64,000 bases of DNA from Sulfuritalea sp. (GTDB lineage: Bacteria > Pseudomonadota > Gammaproteobacteria > Burkholderiales > Rhodocyclaceae): the NCBI RefSeq assembly GCF_017302275.1, contig NZ_JAFLDR010000005.1, positions 1 to 64,000 of the forward strand, in the 5' to 3' direction. Position 1 is the stretch's first letter. Every line of letters starts with the position of its first letter. The notes beneath the pieces were generated by a model. The model was not told the DNA's origin. It was given only the letters and a program-made list of their open reading frames with translations, and made no database searches. The position numbers and the translations under genes are program-made. This document shows positions 2,737-41,314 of the stretch, piece by piece.

Positions 2737-2828
2737 AGGCGAACGTCAGGGTCAATATCCCCGTCTCGTCAGCGCCGACTTTTTGTAGCAGTTTGCACTC
2801 GCATCCAATGCCGGGGACCAAGGCATGA
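2733..2828 (+). CDS. Possible 31-residue coupling ORF between tauE-like and cobT-like genes
   Basis: A 31-codon frame starts inside the TauE stop (ATGA) and ends inside the CobT start (ATGA), filling the whole intergenic gap. The peptide starts MKANVRVNIP and ends HPMPGTKA, with one Cys and no membrane segment. The exact fit at both ends suggests real translational coupling rather than chance. Its function is unknown; it could be a coupling device, a small protein or the relic of a larger one. Confidence 0.4.
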   Translation: MKANVRVNIPVSSAPTFCSSLHSHPMPGTKA

Positions 2829-5348: not shown

Positions 5349-5379
5349 GTCGGCGCCGTCCTGCCATCGCCGACTTTTG
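5349..5379 (+). terminator. Probable rho-independent terminator of the first operon
   Basis: GTCGGCG (5349-5355) pairs with CGCCGAC (5368-5374) across a 12-base loop and is followed by TTTTG. It lies between the end of the second Lin0512 gene and the convergent IclR gene. Confidence 0.5.
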
Positions 5380-21879: not shown

Positions 21880-22934
21880 ACATCTGCCTGCGACGGCGCT
21901 TGTACCCCCTCGGCCTTGCCATTCTTCTGGGGCTTTCCGGCTGCGGGGACAAGCCGGCCGATGCGCCACCGGCGAAATCCGGACCACCGGCGGTCGACGC
22001 GGTCCGCTTCGCCGATCTGGCTTTCCTGCCCGAGCGCGAGGCGCCGGCAACCGCCCAGGGCAAGAACGAAACGCGGCTGGCGGCCGAACTCGCCGCGCGC
22101 ATCGTCGCCATACCTGTCGACAGCGGCGACAAGGTCAAGCCGGGCCAAGTTCTGGTCAAGCTCGATGCCAGGGATGCCGAACTGGCGCTGGCGCGTGCCG
22201 AGGCGGCGCTGGCCCAGGCCAATGCCCGCCTGGCGCAAGCCGAGGCGCAGTCCGCAAGGGCGCGCAGCCTCAAGGAACGGAACTTCATCTCGGCCGAGGC
22301 GCTGACCCTGCGCGAAACCGAACTCGCGGCGGCGCAGGCCGACGTCGCGTCGGCAAAGGCGGCGCGCGACACGGCGCGGCGTACCGTCGAGAAGTGCAAG
22401 CTCGTGGCGCCCTTCGCCGGCATCGTGCGCACACGCAGCGCCCAGGTCGGCGAAATCACCACCCCCGGCGCACCCTTGCTGACCCTGGCCGACACCTCGG
22501 AAATGCAAGTCGTCGCCCAGGTCCAGGCGCGCGATGCGGCAGGCCTCGCGGCAGCGGCCAAGGTCGGCTTCGATGCCGCCGGCACAGGGCACGAGCTCAA
22601 GCCGCTCCGCGTTTCGCCGGCGGTGAATCGCGAAGCGCGGACCGTGGAAGCCCGCTACGCCTTCGTCGCCACGCCGCCGGCGCCGGGTACCGAAGGCCGG
22701 CTGGTCTGGCGCGACCCGACGCCGCACCTGGCCGCCGAGTACATCCTGCGGCGCAACTCGAGTTACGGCGTCTTCGTTCTGGAAGGCAACACCGCGCGCT
22801 TCCTTGCGCTGCCGCAGGCCCAGGAGGGCCGTCCCGCCAGCGCCGACTTTTCGCCTGACGCGCGCATCGTCACCCGCGGCCGCCATGCGCTGCAGGACGG
22901 CATGATCGTAACGCTGCAGGCAGGCGGCAAATGA
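21876..22934 (+). CDS. RND efflux membrane-fusion lipoprotein, first
   Basis: The 352-residue HlyD/AcrA-type adaptor has a lipoprotein signal (LGLSGCGDK). A biotinyl-lipoyl half (IPVDSGDKVKPGQVLVKLD) and an alpha-helical hairpin of Ala/Glu-rich heptads (about residues 95-165) follow. Next come the second lipoyl half (FAGIVRTRSAQVGE) and a beta-barrel. It links the inner-membrane pump to the outer-membrane channel. It overlaps both tetR and the downstream permease by ATGA. Confidence 0.92.
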   Translation: MNICLRRRLYPLGLAILLGLSGCGDKPADAPPAKSGPPAVDAVRFADLAFLPEREAPATAQGKNETRLAAELAARIVAIPVDSGDKVKPGQVLVKLDARDAELALARAEAALAQANARLAQAEAQSARARSLKERNFISAEALTLRETELAAAQADVASAKAARDTARRTVEKCKLVAPFAGIVRTRSAQVGEITTPGAPLLTLADTSEMQVVAQVQARDAAGLAAAAKVGFDAAGTGHELKPLRVSPAVNREARTVEARYAFVATPPAPGTEGRLVWRDPTPHLAAEYILRRNSSYGVFVLEGNTARFLALPQAQEGRPASADFSPDARIVTRGRHALQDGMIVTLQAGGK

Positions 22935-26062: not shown

Positions 26063-27132
26063 ACAAAATCCCTTTCGCGGCAACGCTTGCCGCCTTGTTC
26101 CTCGTTGCTTGCAGCGAGCCGCCCGCGCCGGCTGCGCCCCTGAAACTGGTGCGTACCCTGAAAGTCGGCGCTACCATAAACCCAACGGCTGGCACCAGTG
26201 GCGATACGGCGAATTCGGGCACCGAACGCAGCTACAGCGGCGAAGTGCGGGCCCGCATCGAGACCACGCTGGGTTTTCGCATCCCCGGCAAGATCGTCGA
26301 GCGTCGCGCCGACGTCGGGCAGGCGGTGAAGCCCGGCCAGGTGCTGGCGCGGCTCGATCCGGCCGATGCCGCCCTGCAGGCGACACAGGCCGAGGCGCAG
26401 CGTGCCCTGGCGGCGGCCGACCTGGCGCGCACCCGCGATCTCAGGACGAAGAACTTCGTCAGTGCGGCCGCGCTCGATGCGCGCGAGACCGCCTTCAAGG
26501 CCGCCGAGGCGCAGGCGCAACTGGCGAAAAACCAGGCGGCCTACACCACGCTGGTGGCCGACCGCGCCGGCGTCATCGGCCAGGTGCTGGCCGAGCCGGG
26601 GCAGGTGGTCAGCGTCGGCCAGGCGGTGTTTCGCCTCGCACCCGATGGCGAGCGCGAAATCGCGATCAGCATTCCCGAGGGCGAGGTCACCGGCTTCAAG
26701 CTCGGGCAGGCAGCCGAGGTGCGAATCTGGTCGGGGCGCGACAAGCCCATTGCCGGCAGCCTGCGTGAGATCGCCCCCGCTGCCGATCCGGTGACGCGCA
26801 CCTTTGCCGCGCGAATCAGCCTCAAGGATGCCGACCCGCGCCTGCCGCTGGGCATGACGGCCACGGTGCGCTTCACCGGGACGGCGGGCGCCGGCGGGAC
26901 CTTGGTGATTCCGCTGGCCGCGGTCTTCCAGCAGGGCGACCAGCCGGCGGTGTGGAAAGTCGGCGCTGACGGTACGGTAAATCTGCAGCGCGTCAAGGTG
27001 GCGGCCTTGACCGATGCGGGCGCGGTGGTCAGCGAGGGCCTGGCCGGCGGCGAACAGATCGTGGCGGCGGGCGTCAACCTGCTGACCGCGGGCGAGAAGG
27101 TCCGCATTGCCGTCCAGGCCGCCGGCAAATGA
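26059..27132 (+). CDS. RND efflux membrane-fusion lipoprotein, second
   Basis: The 357-residue adaptor begins with a lipoprotein signal (FLVACSEP). It has the same lipoyl-hairpin-lipoyl-barrel order as the first one, for example ADVGQAVKPGQVLARLDPAD and ADRAGVIGQVLAEPGQVV. The two adaptors are only distantly alike, so this is not a fresh duplication. ATGA overlaps couple it to the permeases on both sides. Start at 26059 is set by the overlap and the lipobox. Confidence 0.92.
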   Translation: MNKIPFAATLAALFLVACSEPPAPAAPLKLVRTLKVGATINPTAGTSGDTANSGTERSYSGEVRARIETTLGFRIPGKIVERRADVGQAVKPGQVLARLDPADAALQATQAEAQRALAAADLARTRDLRTKNFVSAAALDARETAFKAAEAQAQLAKNQAAYTTLVADRAGVIGQVLAEPGQVVSVGQAVFRLAPDGEREIAISIPEGEVTGFKLGQAAEVRIWSGRDKPIAGSLREIAPAADPVTRTFAARISLKDADPRLPLGMTATVRFTGTAGAGGTLVIPLAAVFQQGDQPAVWKVGADGTVNLQRVKVAALTDAGAVVSEGLAGGEQIVAAGVNLLTAGEKVRIAVQAAGK

Positions 27133-32782: not shown

Positions 32783-34040
32783 GCAAATCCATGGTCCGTG
32801 CCGTGGCGCCGCGATGGCGCTCGGCGAAGCGGCGTCCGGCACTGCCCATTGCCTGCAGAGCCGCATCATCAGCCAGCAGGTCCTTAACCTGGCCCACAAG
32901 ATCGTCGGCATCGACGATCGTCCGCGCCGCACCACAGGTCACGGCCGCGCGTGCCGCATCCGCAAAATTCCGGGTTGATGGTCCAATCAGGATGGGCGTG
33001 CCGCAGGCCGCCGCCTCGATCAGATTCTGGCTGCCGAAATCGAGCAGGCTGCCACCGATGAAGGCGAGGTCCGCCGACACGTAGTAGGCGAACATCTCGC
33101 CCATGCTGTCGCCAACAAGCACATCCGTGTCGCCAGCTACCACCGTGTTTTCACTGCGCAATTGCACGCGGTAGCCGCTTTCGCGGGCAAGCTTCGCCAC
33201 GTCGCCGAAGCGTTGCGGATGGCGCGGCACGATGACCAGTAGCGCCGGAGTTCCATCCGAACGACCGCCGGCGGATCCAAGCTGGCGCCAGGCACGGAGG
33301 ATCAGCGCCTCCTCGCCCTCGCGGGTGCTGGCGGCGAGCCAGGCCTTGCGGCTGCCACGTCGCAGGCGCAGCTCGGCACCCAATTCGAGTTGTTGGGCCG
33401 GCACCGTGATATCGAACTTGAGGTTGCCGGTCACGGTGACGTGACGCGCGCCGAGGGCTTCCAGTCGTCCGCCATCAGCGTTCGACTGTGCGCCAATGGC
33501 GCTCAGTGATCCCAGGGCTTCGCGCGTCAACGCCGCGAATTGCGCGTAGCGGCGCGCGGAACGATCCGATAGCCGGGCATTGACCAGCAGCAGTGGCACC
33601 GATTCCTCGCGGCAGGCGGCGACCAGGTTCGGCCACAGTTCGGTTTCCATGATCAGGCCGAGGCGGGGCCGAAAGTGGCGCAGGAAGCGGCGCATCCCCC
33701 GGGGCGTGTCGTAGGGCAGGTAGATGCGCTCGACGCTGTCGCCGAACAGCGCTTCCGATGTGGCGCGTCCGGTCGGCGTCATGTGGGTGAACAGGATGCG
33801 GTGATCCGGATAGGTTTCGCGCAACGCCGCGACCAGGGGCAGCGCCGCCCGTGTTTCGCCTACCGATACGGCGTGCAGCCAGATCGTAGGCCCGGCGGAC
33901 CCGGACGCAGCACCGTAACGGGCGAAGCGCTCGCCCCAGTGATGCAGGTACTCCGGTTGTCGGCGGGCGCGCCAGAGCAGGTGCGCGACCGCCCAGGGTA
34001 GCAGCGCGAGTATCGCCAGGCTGTAAAGGAAGCGTGCCAT
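32763..34040 (-). CDS. waaA: 3-deoxy-D-manno-octulosonic acid (Kdo) transferase
   Basis: The 425-residue glycosyltransferase adds Kdo to lipid IVA at the inner membrane. It has an N-terminal membrane anchor (FLYSLAILALLPWAVAHLLW), WLHAVSVGETRAALPL, METELWPNLVAACR and the C-terminal FIGGSLLDFGSQNLIEAAACG. Its start overlaps the waaC stop by ATGA. Length is that of normal KdtA. Its stop lies within the tolC coding end. Confidence 0.95.
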   Translation of the reverse strand: MARFLYSLAILALLPWAVAHLLWRARRQPEYLHHWGERFARYGAASGSAGPTIWLHAVSVGETRAALPLVAALRETYPDHRILFTHMTPTGRATSEALFGDSVERIYLPYDTPRGMRRFLRHFRPRLGLIMETELWPNLVAACREESVPLLLVNARLSDRSARRYAQFAALTREALGSLSAIGAQSNADGGRLEALGARHVTVTGNLKFDITVPAQQLELGAELRLRRGSRKAWLAASTREGEEALILRAWRQLGSAGGRSDGTPALLVIVPRHPQRFGDVAKLARESGYRVQLRSENTVVAGDTDVLVGDSMGEMFAYYVSADLAFIGGSLLDFGSQNLIEAAACGTPILIGPSTRNFADAARAAVTCGAARTIVDADDLVGQVKDLLADDAALQAMGSAGRRFAERHRGATARTMDLLSRASR

Positions 34041-35005
34041 CAGATCAGCGGCATGGCCGCCGCCAGCACCGCGTCGACCGGGGGTGGCTCGCCGCGGCGA
34101 CCCAGGTTGATCGCCGGCGCGGCGGCGAGGACGCCCGTCAGCGTCGGGTCGGAGGCCGCAAACAGGGCAAGCGTCGGGCGTCCTAGCGCGGCTGCCAGAT
34201 GCACCAGGCCGGTGTCGACACCGACCACGATGCGCGCGCCGGCGAGCTGCCCGGCAAGTTCGCGCAAGCCCATCGGCGGCAATGCGACAGCATCGGGAAT
34301 CACCTGCGCGAGGCGCTTTGCGCGTTCGCGTTCGGTGCCACTGCCCGACGGCAGGAGACAAGTCAGGCCTCGTCCGTGCAAGGCGTGCCCCAGTGCGATC
34401 CAGGATGCTTCCGGCCACAGCTTGTCGTCGCGCGAGGTCGCGGTCAGCAGCACGGCATGGGGTCCAGCAAGTGTCGGCGTCCCACAGGGACTTCCTTCGG
34501 TCGCCGGCGGCACCGTGATTCCATAAACAGGGGCCGCTGCGACCGCATAACCGGCGGCAAGCGCCGCGAGTTGCCGGTTGCGCGCGACGGCGTGAAGATC
34601 GTTTGGCACCTCGAAGCACGCATCGTAGAGGCGTGCCGAGATCGGCTCTCGCGCCGAGGATGCCGCGTAGCCGCAGCGCCGACCGCGCGCCATGCGGGCA
34701 AGCAGTGCGCTTTTCAGCAGGCCCTGCGTATCGATCACGCTATCGTAGGATTGCATCTGCAGGCCGGCGCGAAACGCACGCAGCTCGCGCCATGTGTTTG
34801 CGTCCAGGAGGGATTTGCGCCAGCGCCGCAGTGCCACCGGGATGCTGTGCCGCACGTCGGGATGGAGGCCGACGATGTCCGTGTAGGCTTCCTCCACCAC
34901 CCAGTCGATCGCCGCGTTCGGAAAATTCGCGCGCAGATCCGTGACCACCGGCAGATTGTGGACCACATCGCCAAGCGAGGATGTCTTGATCAGGAGAATG
35001 CGCAT
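34040..35005 (-). CDS. waaC: Lipopolysaccharide heptosyltransferase I
   Basis: The family-9 glycosyltransferase adds the first heptose to Kdo in the LPS inner core. The start at 35005 gives the standard MRILLIKTSSLGDVVHNLP. An in-frame ATG at 35044 is less likely because a TATAAT on the minus strand (35060-35055) would place transcription about at 35048. The C-terminal half has HAVLLTATSRDDKLWPEASW and GVDTGLVHLAAALG. The linker between the two domains carries the inserted peptide [10 protein letters not shown], encoded by a dispersed repeat. Confidence 0.93.
   Translation of the reverse strand: MRILLIKTSSLGDVVHNLPVVTDLRANFPNAAIDWVVEEAYTDIVGLHPDVRHSIPVALRRWRKSLLDANTWRELRAFRAGLQMQSYDSVIDTQGLLKSALLARMARGRRCGYAASSAREPISARLYDACFEVPNDLHAVARNRQLAALAAGYAVAAAPVYGITVPPATEGSPCGTPTLAGPHAVLLTATSRDDKLWPEASWIALGHALHGRGLTCLLPSGSGTERERAKRLAQVIPDAVALPPMGLRELAGQLAGARIVVGVDTGLVHLAAALGRPTLALFAASDPTLTGVLAAAPAINLGRRGEPPPVDAVLAAAMPLI
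34473..34515 (+). repeat. Dispersed short repeat, copy A, inside waaC
   Basis: The 23-bp core CCCACAGGGACTTCCTTCGG plus TCG (34481-34503) is identical to that of copy C, preceded in both by GTCGGCG. Downstream similarity fades. In waaC it is read on the opposite strand as [11 protein letters not shown], between the two Rossmann-like domains. Confidence 0.85.
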
Positions 35006-35067
35006 CGGTAGGGGCGGGATGATGTCTTGCGCCGTAAAATGCATCCCGCCTGCAATTATAGCCGCCC

Positions 35068-35877
35068 ATGACTCCAGACCATCGAATGCCGCTTACCGCC
35101 GTCCTGATCACCCTCAACGCGGCCGATCGGCTGGAAGATTGCCTTGCCAGCGTGGCGTTCTGCGCCGAAATCGTGGTGGTCGATTCCGGCAGCGATGATG
35201 CGACTGTGGCCATCGCCGAACGCCACGGCGCGCGCGTGATCCGCTCGGAATGGCGCGGTTTCGGCCCGCAGAAGCAGTTCGCCGTGGAGCAGGCGAGCCA
35301 CGACTGGGTGCTGTGCATCGACGCCGACGAGCGGGTGAGCGAGCGCCTGCGCGAGAGTATTTGTGCCGTGTTACCAGCGACCGAAGGCAGTCCCTGTGGG
35401 GCGCCAGCGCGGTGCGTGCCTGCGGGAACTTTTGCGGCCTATCGCTTCCCACGCTGCAACAAGTTCATGGGGCGCTATCTGAAGCATGGTGAAGGCTATC
35501 CCGACTGGTGCCTGCGCCTGTTCGACCGCCGCCGCGCGCGCTGGTCGGATGATCCGGTGCATGAGAAAGTGGTTGCCGGGGGCGAAATCGGCAGTCTCGC
35601 GGGCGACCTGTTGCACGAGTCGGCGGAGTCGCTCGACACCTACCTGGCCAAGCAGAACCGATACAGCACGATTGCGGCCGAGGCGGCACTGGCGCAAGGC
35701 CGGCGGGCGACGCCGGCGCACCTGCTGCTGTCGCCGCTGCTGCGCTTCGCCAAGTTTTATTTCTTCCGGCTGGGCCTGCTGGACGGACTTCCCGGCCTGG
35801 TGCACATCCTCGTCGGCTGCGGCGCCAGCTTCGCCAAATATGCGAAAATGCTGGCTTTTCAGCGGAATTCCCCATGA
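35068..35877 (+). CDS. Family-2 glycosyltransferase, LPS core type (WaaE/KdtX-like)
   Basis: The 269-residue protein has the GT-A start [20 protein letters not shown], a VVVDSGSDD nucleotide-binding loop and the metal-binding [21 protein letters not shown] and a C-terminal hydrophobic stretch follow. WaaE-like enzymes add glucose to LPS core heptose. MPLTAV at 35086 is an alternative start. About 15 extra residues ([10 protein letters not shown] and flanks, near residue 108) come from a dispersed repeat. It is divergent from waaC and overlaps the following epimerase by ATGA. Confidence 0.88.
35365..35406 (-). repeat. Dispersed short repeat, copy B, inside the GT2 gene
   Basis: This copy lies in inverse orientation. 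Core 35378-35400 differs from copies A and C at one base, and with copy C the likeness extends over about 41 bp (GGCGC before, CTGGTNACACGGC after). It is read in frame as [11 protein letters not shown], the same peptide and phase as in waaC. Confidence 0.87.
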
Positions 35878-36881
35878 AAGTCCTGGTCACTGGCGCCGCC
35901 GGGTTTATCGGCATGCATGTCTGCCAGCTATTGCTTGCGCGCGGCGACGAGGTGATCGGCGTAGACAACTTCAACGACTACTACGACATCGCGCTCAAGG
36001 AGGCGCGGCTGGCGCGGCTGACGCGCAGTCCATGCTTCAGGATATCGCGACTCGACATCGCCGACCGGTCCGGCATTGCCGATCTGTTCGCCACTGAACG
36101 CCCGCAGCGCGTCGTCAATCTCGCCGCCCAGGCCGGCGTGCGCTACTCGCTGAAGAATCCGCATGCCTACGTCGATAGCAACGTGGTCGGTTTCGTCAAT
36201 ATTCTCGAAGGTTGCCGCCACAACGGTGTCGAGCATTTCCTGTATGCCAGCAGTTCCAGCATATACGGCGGCAATGAGCGCATGCCCTTTTCGGAACATG
36301 ACAACGTCGATCACCCGGTCAGCCTCTACGCCGCGACCAAGAAGGCCAACGAACTGATGGCGCATACCTATAGCCATCTGTACGCGTTGCCGACCACCGG
36401 ACTGCGCTTCTTCACGGTATATGGACCCTGGGGTCGTCCCGACATGGCTCCGATCCTGTTCGCCCGGGCGATCCTGGAAGGTCGCCCGATCGACGTATTC
36501 AATCACGGCAAGATGCGCCGCGACTTCACCTACATCGACGACATCGCCGAAGGCGTGATCCGGGCGCTGGACCGCGTGCCGCAGGCCGACCCGGGCTTCG
36601 ACCGGTTGTCGCCCGACCCGGCCACCAGTTGGGCGCCCTACCGCATCTTCAACATCGGCAATAACCAGCCGGTGGAACTGATGGCATTCATCGAAGCTCT
36701 CGAGCAGGCCCTGGGAAAGAAGGCGGCGAAGAACTTCCTGCCGATGCAGAATGGCGATGTCCAGGCGACGTATGCAGACGTCGCGGACCTTGCCAGCGCA
36801 ACGGGCTTCAAGCCGCGGACCGAACTGGTCGATGGCGTGCGGCGTTTTGTCGATTGGTACCGGAGCTACACGAATGCCTGA
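35874..36881 (+). CDS. UDP-glucuronate 4-epimerase-type NAD-dependent epimerase
   Basis: The 335-residue short-chain epimerase has [10 protein letters not shown] for NAD binding, the long N-terminal VDNFNDYYD loop, SSSSIYGGN and catalytic YAATK. The loop and the [16 protein letters not shown] segment are typical of UDP-glucuronate epimerases (galacturonate supply). It overlaps the preceding glycosyltransferase and the following manC. Confidence 0.9.
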
Positions 36882-38352
36882 TTCGCAACTTGTTCCTGTT
36901 GTCCTCAGCGGCGGATCGGGCACGCGCCTGTGGCCTGTCTCGCGCGAGAAGCATCCCAAGCAATTGCAGCCCCTGCTGGGCGGCGAGAGCCTGCTGCAGA
37001 ACACCCTGCGCCGCCTGCAAGGCCTGCCGCTGGGCGCGCCCATCGTGGTAAGCAACCAGGACTATCGATTCATCACCGCCGAGCAGTTGCGCCAGCTCGG
37101 GCTGTCGGCATGGACGCTGCTGCTGGAACCGGCCGGGCGCAATACGGCGCCGGCCCTGACGGCGGCGGCGGTATACGCGGCGCGCGCCGGCGCTGACCCG
37201 GTGCTGCTGGCGACGCCGGCCGACCATCATGTGCGCGATCCTGCCGCGTTCCGGGCTGCCGTGCTGCGGGGCCTGTCCGAGGCGGAACGCGGCGCCGTGG
37301 TGACGTTTGGCATCCTTCCCGATCGTCCGGAAACCGGCTATGGCTACATCGAAGTGAAAGTCGGCGCCCCACAGGGACTTCCTTCGGTCGCTGGTGACAC
37401 GGCGCCCGGCGCGGCGATGGACCTGAGGGCCTTCCGCGAGAAGCCTGACGCGGCCACCGCGGCGACCTACGTTGCGGATGGACGCCACTATTGGAATAGC
37501 GGCATCTTCATGTTGCGCGCTTCCGTCTGGCTGAAGGCCATTGGCCATTTCGCGCCGGAAATTCTGACCGCGTGTAACGCGGCGGTTGCGAAGGCCCACG
37601 ACGATGGTGATTTCCTGCGGCTCGATGCCGATGCCTTCGCGGCATCCCCGGCGGATTCGATCGACTATGCGGTGATGGAAAAGCTGCCGACCACCCAAGA
37701 ATTGCGGATTCCCAGTCGGGTGATTCCGCTCGACGTCGGCTGGTCGGATGTCGGCGCCTGGGATGCGCTGTGGGAGGCGATCGACCGCGACGCCGACGGC
37801 AATGCCGTGAAGGGCGACGTCTGGATGGAGGATTCGCACGGCAACCTGGTCATCGCCGAGCATGGCCTGGTCGCCTGCCTCGGCTGCGAAGACATGGTGG
37901 TGGTGGAAACCGCCGACGCCGTATTGATCGCGCCCAAGGCCCGTACCCAGGATGTCCGGCTCATCGTCAGCCGGCTCAAGGCTGCAGGGCGCAGCGAAAC
38001 CGATTTGCATCGCAAGGTGCACCGACCGTGGGGCTGGTTCGACGGAATCGACAGCGGCGAACGCTTCCAGGTCAAGCGCATCGTGGTGCGTCCGGGCGCC
38101 AAACTTTCGCTGCAGATGCACCATCACCGCGCCGAGCACTGGGTGGTGGTCAGTGGCACGGCGAGGGTTACGCGCGGCGACGAGGTGCTGCTCTTGGGTG
38201 AAAACGAATCGACCTTCATTCCGTTGGGCGTCAAGCATCGCCTGGAAAACCCGGGACAGATCCCGCTCGAGATCATCGAGGTGCAATCCGGCAGCTACCT
38301 GGGCGAGGACGACATCGTGCGCTTCGACGACAATTACGGACGCAAACCATGA
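36874..38352 (+). CDS. manC: Mannose-1-phosphate guanylyltransferase / mannose-6-phosphate isomerase
   Basis: The 492-residue bifunctional enzyme makes GDP-mannose. The N-terminal pyrophosphorylase domain has [17 protein letters not shown] and FREKPD, and the C-terminal type II phosphomannose isomerase cupin has [18 protein letters not shown] and [16 protein letters not shown] 36874 overlaps the epimerase end by eight bases. A dispersed repeat adds [14 protein letters not shown] near residue 165, in a surface-loop region of the nucleotidyltransferase domain. GDP-mannose from this enzyme would have fed the damaged gmd gene next door. Confidence 0.94.
37362..37403 (+). repeat. Dispersed short repeat, copy C, inside manC
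   Basis: Core 37368-37390 is identical to copy A over 23 bp. Read on the plus strand here, it encodes [13 protein letters not shown]. The element is thus open in both orientations across the three genes. Confidence 0.87.
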
Positions 38353-41197: not shown

Positions 41198-41218
41198 GGT
41201 GCTGTTTCAAGAGTCGGC
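41198..41218 (+). repeat. Direct repeat, right copy, in ops leader
   Basis: GGTGCTGTTTCAAGAGTCGG plus C is the partner of the repeat at 41090-41110; the three mismatches are clustered in the middle. Confidence 0.6.
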
Positions 41219-41314
41219 GCCGGCAGGACGGCGCCGGAGTCGAATGCCACCAGCCCCAAGCCGCCGGTAGGGCATCTCGGCTTCACGTTTCAGTTTCCCA
41301 TCCTGATATTCGCC

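What the first reader, a model, noticed from the sequence alone, without database searches (positions are those of the whole stretch)
34473..37403. One short dispersed repeat embedded in frame in three neighbouring sugar genes
A 23-bp core (CCCACAGGGACT-T/G-CCTTCGG then TCG) occurs at 34481-34503, 35378-35400 (inverse) and 37368-37390. Copies B and C agree over about 41 bp with two mismatches. All lie inside coding sequence and keep the frame: waaC and the GT2 gene read it as [11 protein letters not shown], manC reads the other strand as [13 protein letters not shown]. Each peptide sits in an inter-domain linker or a loop where relatives should have less sequence. This recalls Rickettsia palindromic elements that insert inside genes, but the sequence is different and not a simple palindrome.
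Basis: partly seen in the sequence, partly recalled or inferred. Interest (0 to 1): 0.8.

Follow-up and report, generated by a model that had tools for sequence, protein, structure and literature searches.

The report
Portable 24-base insert inside repeats
Three neighbouring sugar-coat genes of a bacterium carry the same tiny 24-base DNA insert, which sits inside an older scattered repeat, adds eight tolerated amino acids to each protein, and also turns up inside unrelated repeats of distant bacteria, so it behaves like one of the smallest mobile DNA pieces known.

Summary
In detail: 23-bp cores at the three stated places. They belong to a genome-wide family of 74 copies at up to 3 mismatches, control 0. 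The unit is composite. A 25-bp repeat ("E25", AAAAGTCGGCGCTGGCGNNACGGCG; 336 pattern hits here, 13-408 in 31 of 31 genus genomes, 0-4 in 30 others) is split at one position and in one orientation by a 24-bp module ("M24", YCCCACAGGGACTTCCTTCGGTCG): 73 of 73 copies examined. In the nearest relative, 16 of 18 informative orthologous sites hold E25 without M24 and 2 hold both, so M24 entered resident E25 copies. M24 also lies in an unrelated hairpin of Pseudoxanthomonas and kin, mostly as the same net 24 bp (17 of 65 hits), and exactly in 47 listed genomes outside E25, sometimes as 24-bp tandem arrays. In genes, 23 of 26 copies use two of six frames. E25 lies beside RAYT-type transposase genes (16 of 24) but is no canonical REP. 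Best reading: a portable micro-insertion, tolerated in proteins, closest to cyanobacterial SDR modules. How it moves is inferred, not shown.

The parts
34040..35005 (-). waaC (heptosyltransferase I, 321 aa; relatives with E25 alone 312-313 aa)
   Evidence: Glyco_transf_9; PDB 2gt1; lengths
34469..34517 (+). E25 repeat split by M24, inside waaC (arms 34469-34479 and 34504-34517)
   Evidence: consensus from 73 copies; E25 without M24 in relatives
34480..34503 (+). M24, the 24-bp module, in waaC (antisense; adds TEGSPCGT)
35068..35877 (+). GT2-family glycosyltransferase gene, 269 aa (9 of 16 relatives with a start found: 253-254 aa)
   Evidence: Glycos_transf_2; lengths
35378..35401 (-). M24 in the GT2 gene (the gene reads its complement within [11 protein letters not shown])
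35406..35428 (+). second, different insert in the same E25 copy, net 21 bp, seen in similar form in relative L119
36874..38352 (+). manC (mannose-1-phosphate guanylyltransferase/isomerase, 492 aa; relatives 482-484 with E25 or part of it, 479-481 without)
37356..37404 (+). E25 repeat split by M24, inside manC (arms 37356-37366 and 37391-37404)
37367..37390 (+). M24 in manC (read within [13 protein letters not shown])
26160..26211 (+). another E25 copy, carrying a different 27-bp insert
22827..22851 (-). E25 copy without insert
5354..5378 (-). E25 copy without insert
2759..2783 (-). E25 copy without insert, 2 mismatches
26955..26979 (+). E25 copy without insert, 2 mismatches
41209..41233 (+). 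E25 copy without insert

Best explanation
M24 (YCCCACAGGGACTTCCTTCGGTCG) is a portable 24-bp insertion module. In this genome it has multiplied by entering copies of an older 25-bp dispersed repeat (E25) at one fixed position and orientation, with a net gain of 24 bp. Shown by comparison: the nested structure, precise empty sites, mostly the same 24-bp net insertion in an unrelated hairpin repeat of another bacterial class, and frame selection in genes. Inferred: within one genome it spreads by short single-stranded copying from an occupied repeat into an empty sister repeat, while jumps to a new repeat family are rare. Inferred and weaker: the RAYT-type (Y1/HUH) transposase whose genes lie beside E25 may supply the single-stranded DNA. 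Because 24 bp is eight codons and all six frames of the consensus are open, insertions into genes add a short loop; only frames and places that the proteins tolerate remain.
For: 74 copies, 36 + and 38 -, control 0. 73 of 73 fetched copies sit inside E25 in the same orientation, 0 reversed. Of 37 sites queried against the nearest relative G014, 16 were informative: 14 hold E25 without M24 (11 with a clean 24-bp gap) and 2 hold both; window waaC and GT2 add 2 more without M24. None of these 18 lacks E25. E25 is in 31 of 31 genus genomes, M24 in 9 of 31 and abundant only in G000 (74) and G014 (36). Hairpins CCCCTCTCCCNNNGGGAGAGGGG occur empty (23 bp) and with M24: 17 of 65 hits in five genomes searched, 10 of the 17 exactly 47 bp, the others 45-48. 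M24 is exact in 47 listed genomes outside E25, loci of 36-39% GC titled Elusimicrobia among them, and in tandem 24-bp arrays. The variable NN of E25, 6 bp from the junction, is unchanged in 8 of 12 orthologous pairs (chance 0.11). 23 of 26 genic copies are in two frames, P 9e-9. 16 of 24 RAYT-type loci have E25 within 250 bp; 17 copies in 10.8 kb near the genes, 13 in 38.9 kb farther off.
Against: No movement was observed; all is comparison. RAYT dependence is doubtful: five genus genomes show no Y1_Tnp match, among them G018 (99% complete, 204 E25 hits) and G017 (99%, 13 hits). Fixed position and orientation fit copying between repeats, but retention of NN leaves only about 6 bp of matching sequence on the right side, which is very short. 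Insertion into hairpin apices is not general: tight stems of 8 or more at 8 of 61 outside sites (controls 0.4%), and pairs across the junction are no more than in controls (12.6 against 13.7). M24 has no significant fold. Three of the 14 G014 sites are less clean (21-bp gap at L001; L014 and L038 ambiguous).
Confidence: 0.6

Rival explanations
1. Free M24 is inserted directly and site-specifically by an unknown enzyme each time, without an E25-borne donor.
For: Found in several unrelated host repeats and in tandem arrays; flanking NN kept in 8 of 12 pairs; left and right junction bases are pyrimidines at 50 and 49 of 50 outside sites.
Against: Inside E25 the orientation never varies (0 of 73 reversed), which a shared donor explains more simply. 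No enzyme is known; only Y1_Tnp genes were looked for here.
Confidence: 0.25
2. The 49-bp E25+M24 unit transposes as a whole, as REP or RPE elements are thought to do.
For: E25 lies beside RAYT-type genes and is dispersed on both strands.
Against: 0 of 18 informative orthologous sites lack E25; 16 of 18 have E25 without M24. The query contained E25 itself, which may favour such sites.
Confidence: 0.06
3. The 49-bp form is ancestral and the 25-bp form arose by precise loss of 24 bp.
For: Precise 24-bp difference.
Against: E25 in 31 of 31 genus genomes, M24 in 9 of 31 and abundant in 2; none of the readable relatives has M24 at the waaC, GT2 or manC site; the same 24 bp is found in unrelated hosts.
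Confidence: 0.03
4. M24 is a functional DNA or RNA signal (protein-binding site, uptake or processing signal) kept by selection.
For: Copies are well conserved and enriched between genes: 46 of 73 intergenic where 86% of the examined DNA is coding.
Against: Not found in 22 of 31 genus genomes at up to 3 mismatches, no Rfam match in the window, presence differs between close relatives at most informative sites.
Confidence: 0.05
5. Assembly or adapter artefact.
For: The same short string in many draft genomes.
Against: Copies diverge (0-3 mismatches), occur in the complete record CP007444, and follow reading-frame selection.
Confidence: 0.01

Closest known systems
Small dispersed repeats (SDR) of cyanobacteria, SDR5 above all (Elhai et al. 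2008; paper not held, content recalled; cited in PMC4390886, passages seen)
   Same: Size class (21-27 nt, recalled); [quoted passage not shown]
   Different: Different sequence; several unrelated host repeats; found in Beta- and Gammaproteobacteria and in records titled as other phyla; translated inside conserved proteins with frame selection.
REP / RAYT system (PMC2817692, passages; PMC3116915, passages)
   Same: E25 is present in tens to hundreds of copies and lies beside RAYT-type genes.
   Different: E25 has no GT(A/G)G head, no significant fold, and in the sample is often inside genes (38 of 58); the RAYT-type genes are not flanked by two inverted copies.
Rickettsia palindromic elements, RPE (PMC2229807 passages; PMC3733652 section 15)
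   Same: In-frame insertion in conserved genes, tolerated.
   Different: RPEs are given as 105-146 bp with long stem-loops; here 24 bp in 25 bp and no such fold.
Intragenic GTAG and CGTC REPs (PMC3733652, passages and section 15)
   Same: Short repeats inside open reading frames, repair genes included; here MutL.
   Different: No tagged palindrome; the inserted part is nested.

Membership tests
SDR-type very small mobile repeats | Repeat of 21-27 nt (recalled) | tested here: met
   Net insertion 24 bp at 11 of 14 G014 sites without M24 and at 10 of 17 occupied hairpins
SDR-type very small mobile repeats | Precise insertion in another repeat, nested copies (partly recalled) | tested here: met
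   73 of 73 inside E25; tandem 24-bp arrays
SDR-type very small mobile repeats | Shared secondary structure (recalled for SDR4-6) | tested here: inconclusive
   M24 alone folds no better than shuffles, z 0.32 and -0.07; SDR structures were not at hand
SDR-type very small mobile repeats | Confined to a cyanobacterial group (recalled) | tested here: not met
   titles
REP (for E25) | GT(A/G)G head plus palindrome | tested here: not met
   consensus; fold z -0.84
REP (for E25) | Associated with a RAYT gene | tested here: met
   16 of 24 loci within 250 bp
REP (for E25) | RAYT gene flanked by two inverted copies | tested here: not met
   17 near copies: 12 downstream, 11 of these in the gene's orientation, 5 upstream
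REP (for E25) | Predominantly extragenic | tested here: not met
   38 of 58 sampled copies inside genes, 17 intergenic, 3 at an edge
RPE of Rickettsia | 105-146 bp, long stem-loop | tested here: not met
   49 bp, z 0.01 and -0.54
MITE | Terminal inverted repeats and target duplication | tested here: not met
   net 24 bp, no duplication seen beyond one ambiguous base; ends of M24 are not inverted copies
Known RNA family | Rfam gathering score | tested here: not met
   0 matches in the window

The most novel reading that the evidence does not exclude
M24 is a true mobile element of 24 bp that moves between unrelated repeat families and between phyla, probably through folded single-stranded DNA. 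Together with the 27-, 36- and 21-bp inserts found at E25, it belongs to a whole layer of micro-inserts that use dispersed repeats as landing pads and remodel protein linkers eight or twelve residues at a time.
Probability: 0.3. Interest if true: 0.88.

Novelty: new variant of a known kind. Interest (0 to 1): 0.68.

Why it matters
It is far smaller than insertion sequences and MITEs, yet shows precise empty sites, many copies, nested and tandem forms, and occurrence in distant bacteria. That makes a long-standing question testable: how can DNA only 24 bp long, with no gene of its own, multiply in genomes? It also shows a quick route by which conserved enzymes (WaaC, ManC, MutL, Tex, CheZ among them) gain short loops, and gives clean with/without pairs for measuring the cost.

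Tried and rejected
RAYT copy number as a full explanation: rejected, because five genus genomes with E25 show no Y1_Tnp match. General insertion into hairpin apices: only a minority of outside sites fit. Viral carriage of M24: no exact match in IMG/VR. Rfam: nothing in the window. Sequence or peptide strings in print: one search gave two unrelated papers, none; the listings (titles and starts of abstracts) showed no report of this module and one search listed nothing. The library is open-access only, and Elhai 2008 itself is not held. AlphaFold model of ManC: pLDDT 52, not used. One search trained the gene caller with manC out of frame; one search used a corrected set of six genes and returned 24 genic copies; one search used eight checked genes and gave the same counts as for the M24 copies (46, 26, 1), and is the one cited. 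The 26 genic copies thus depend a little on the training set.
Full report
Observation. The two longer copies match over 41 nt at 95%.

Genome-wide family. The whole genome (G000, 4.41 Mb, 88 contigs, unnamed) holds 74 copies at up to 3 mismatches, 36 on one strand and 38 on the other, against 0 for the reversed control. I fetched 73 of the 74. Aligned, they show conservation over 49 bp and then stop: AAAAGTCGGCGC-CCCACAGGGACTTCCTTCGGTCG-CTGGCGNNACGGCG.

Two layers. The outer part exists alone and is much commoner: AAAAGTCGGCGCTGGCGNNACGGCG, here E25. The pattern for it, which also takes in occupied copies, has 336 hits in G000, control 0. Among 61 genomes, all 31 of the genus have 13 to 408 hits; the 30 outside the genus have 0 to 4, about as many as the reversed controls (0 to 3). 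The inner 24 bp, YCCCACAGGGACTTCCTTCGGTCG, here M24, sits in E25 at one position and in one orientation in 73 of 73 copies, 0 reversed; in one of them, L001, three bases of the right arm are lost. M24 is in 9 of 31 genus genomes at up to 3 mismatches: 74 in G000, 36 in G014, 4 in G006, 3 in G008, one each in five others. The genus is not named; three genomes in which M24 also lies in E25 are titled Rhodocyclales or beta proteobacterium.

Empty sites in the window genes. Orthologous regions of relatives were aligned. waaC, 21 relatives: 11 hold a 25-bp E25-like sequence, one a 22-bp one, 8 another insert, one could not be read. manC, 17 readable relatives: 9 hold E25 without M24, 2 part of it, 5 no E25, one another insert. 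GT2, 18 relatives: 10 have no insert and the rest others. None has M24. Proteins differ accordingly: WaaC 321 aa here, 312-313 aa with E25 alone; ManC 492, 482-484 with E25 or part of it, 479-481 without; GT2 269, 253-254 in 9 of 16 relatives with a start found. The protein alignments show a clean eight-residue insert in WaaC and ManC.

Empty sites elsewhere. 37 of the 73 sites were queried, in empty form and so with E25 in the query, against the nearest relative G014. I aligned 19 of the 45 hits, from 18 sites; the other 26 hits were short or fell on a repeat and were not aligned. Two sites were set aside (one on another repeat, one partial). Of the 16 left, 14 have E25 without M24: 11 with a clean 24-bp gap, L001 with 21 bp, L014 and L038 less clean; 2 share M24. 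With waaC and GT2, 16 of 18 have E25 without M24, 2 have both, none lacks E25. So M24 came later than E25 and entered resident copies. The variable NN of E25, six bases from the junction, is unchanged in 8 of 12 pairs where chance gives 0.11 (pairs copied by hand), so the surrounding sequence was not replaced over a long tract.

Other inserts at the same landing pad. Relatives carry different inserts in E25: a 36-bp hairpin-like module in waaC (L116, L129, L130, L135), present in 27 of 31 genus genomes, absent from G000, G014, G012 and G029, inside E25 in about 15 of 20 fetched loci and elsewhere in the rest; an 84-bp insert in manC of L135; a 27-bp insert in the E25 copy at 26160-26211 of the window. 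The window's GT2 copy holds M24 and a second insert of net 21 bp, seen in similar form in L119.

Outside E25. One exact scan of the named genome collection gave 92 stretches with M24; the 80 listed loci come from 50 genomes by my count of the titles, in 47 of which M24 is not in E25: Dyella, Rhodanobacter, Pseudoxanthomonas, Stenotrophomonas, Paraburkholderia, Caballeronia, Sterolibacterium MAGs, and MAGs titled Anaerolineae, Elusimicrobia, Omnitrophota, Uhrbacteria among them. MAG titles can be wrong, but the two loci titled Elusimicrobia have 36% and 39% GC against 61% in the window, so the setting is really different. There M24 lies in other repeats or hairpins in part of the cases, and in tandem arrays with a 24-bp period (L150, L187, L205, L207, L208). 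In four of five genomes searched (two Pseudoxanthomonas, a Stenotrophomonas, a Rhodanobacteraceae MAG), a hairpin CCCCTCTCCCNNNGGGAGAGGGG occurs empty at 23 bp and with M24: 17 of 65 hits, 10 of them exactly 47 bp and the others 45, 46 or 48. The usual net insertion, 24 bp, is the same as in E25. Tight stems flank 8 of 61 outside sites (controls 0.4%), and flanks fold better than controls (-33.6 against -29.9 kcal/mol), but pairs across the junction are not more (12.6 against 13.7), so a hairpin apex is a frequent but not a general target. In the order, 11 of 399 genomes, G000 included, have M24 at up to 2 mismatches. No exact copy in IMG/VR.

In genes. Of 73 copies, 46 are intergenic, 26 inside genes and 1 at an edge, while 86% of the examined DNA is coding by my own codon-usage caller. 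Of the 26, 23 use just two of six frames, [15 protein letters not shown] or [15 protein letters not shown] (P 9e-9), although all six frames of the consensus are free of stops (read directly from the consensus). For E25 alone, 38 of 58 sampled copies are in genes, 18 in one frame. Proteins holding 24 of the 26 genic M24 copies (23 proteins) were scanned with Pfam: WaaC and a second heptosyltransferase with two copies, ManC, GT2, MutL, Tex, CheZ, PAPS reductase, a pseudouridine synthase, LemA, a histidine kinase and others; one had no hit. Comparing positions with the Pfam ranges, 14 of 23 copies in proteins with a hit lie outside the domain matches, for example in the MutL linker, and 9 inside. 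In WaaC the peptide falls in the linker between the two domains (alignment to PDB 2gt1), and the model (mean pLDDT 90) drops to 51 in residues 171-180.

Link to transposases. G000 has one Y1_Tnp gene of 239 aa. Of 45 matches listed in the genus, 30 loci were fetched and 24 hold a gene like that of G000. 16 of these 24 have E25 within 250 bp, mostly downstream in the same orientation; 17 copies in 10.8 kb near the genes against 13 in 38.9 kb farther off in the same loci, and 14.5% for random pseudo-genes in a set that overstates the background. Against a simple dependence: G001, G007, G012, G017 and G018 have E25 but no Y1_Tnp match, though only G017 and G018 are 99% complete.

How it most likely works. 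Shown by comparison: nesting, gain after E25, fixed place and orientation, the same 24 bp in unrelated hosts, selection on frame. Inferred: within a genome M24 is copied from an occupied into an empty sister repeat over a very short single-stranded stretch, and rare jumps start new families; the RAYT-type enzyme may supply single strands. I put 0.6 on the portable module with repeat-to-repeat copying, and less on RAYT taking part. Direct insertion by an unknown enzyme is the main rival.

Known relatives. The nearest match is SDR5 of cyanobacteria, a module inserted precisely inside the octamer HIP1 (PMC4390886 passages; the original paper is not held). In-frame REPs and RPEs are known (PMC3733652 section 15; PMC2229807 passages). 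E25 and M24 fail defining features of REP, RPE and MITE. Hence: new variant of a known kind.

Noticed in passing
L116, L118, L129, L130, L135 (waaC site): A 36-bp hairpin-like module (core CTCTGCGTACCTGGAATTCCGCTTCGCGGGC) is in 27 of 31 genus genomes but absent from G000 and G014, the only two rich in M24, as if the two compete for E25; it is also absent from G012 and G029, which have no M24, so this is weak.
   Followed up: partly
window 26160-26211: E25 copy with a different 27-bp insert; G002 has a related insert in the same kind of setting.
   Followed up: no
L135, manC site: An 84-bp insert in E25 that contains CCCTCTCCC hairpin-like sequence.
   Followed up: no
L293-L372: E25 occurs in at least 120 stretches of IMG/VR contigs (scan stopped at its limit) although M24 has no exact match there; phage carriage and host DNA were not separated.
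   Followed up: no
L057: M24 lies in the linker of the mismatch repair protein MutL.
   Followed up: partly
L012: One heptosyltransferase-like gene carries two M24 copies in opposite orientation about 250 bp apart.
   Followed up: no
G015 C83, G028 C30: Two RAYT-type genes on the same strand, about 1.7 kb from start to start.
   Followed up: no
L150, L187, L205, L207, L208: Tandem arrays of M24 with a 24-bp period in records outside the genus.
   Followed up: partly
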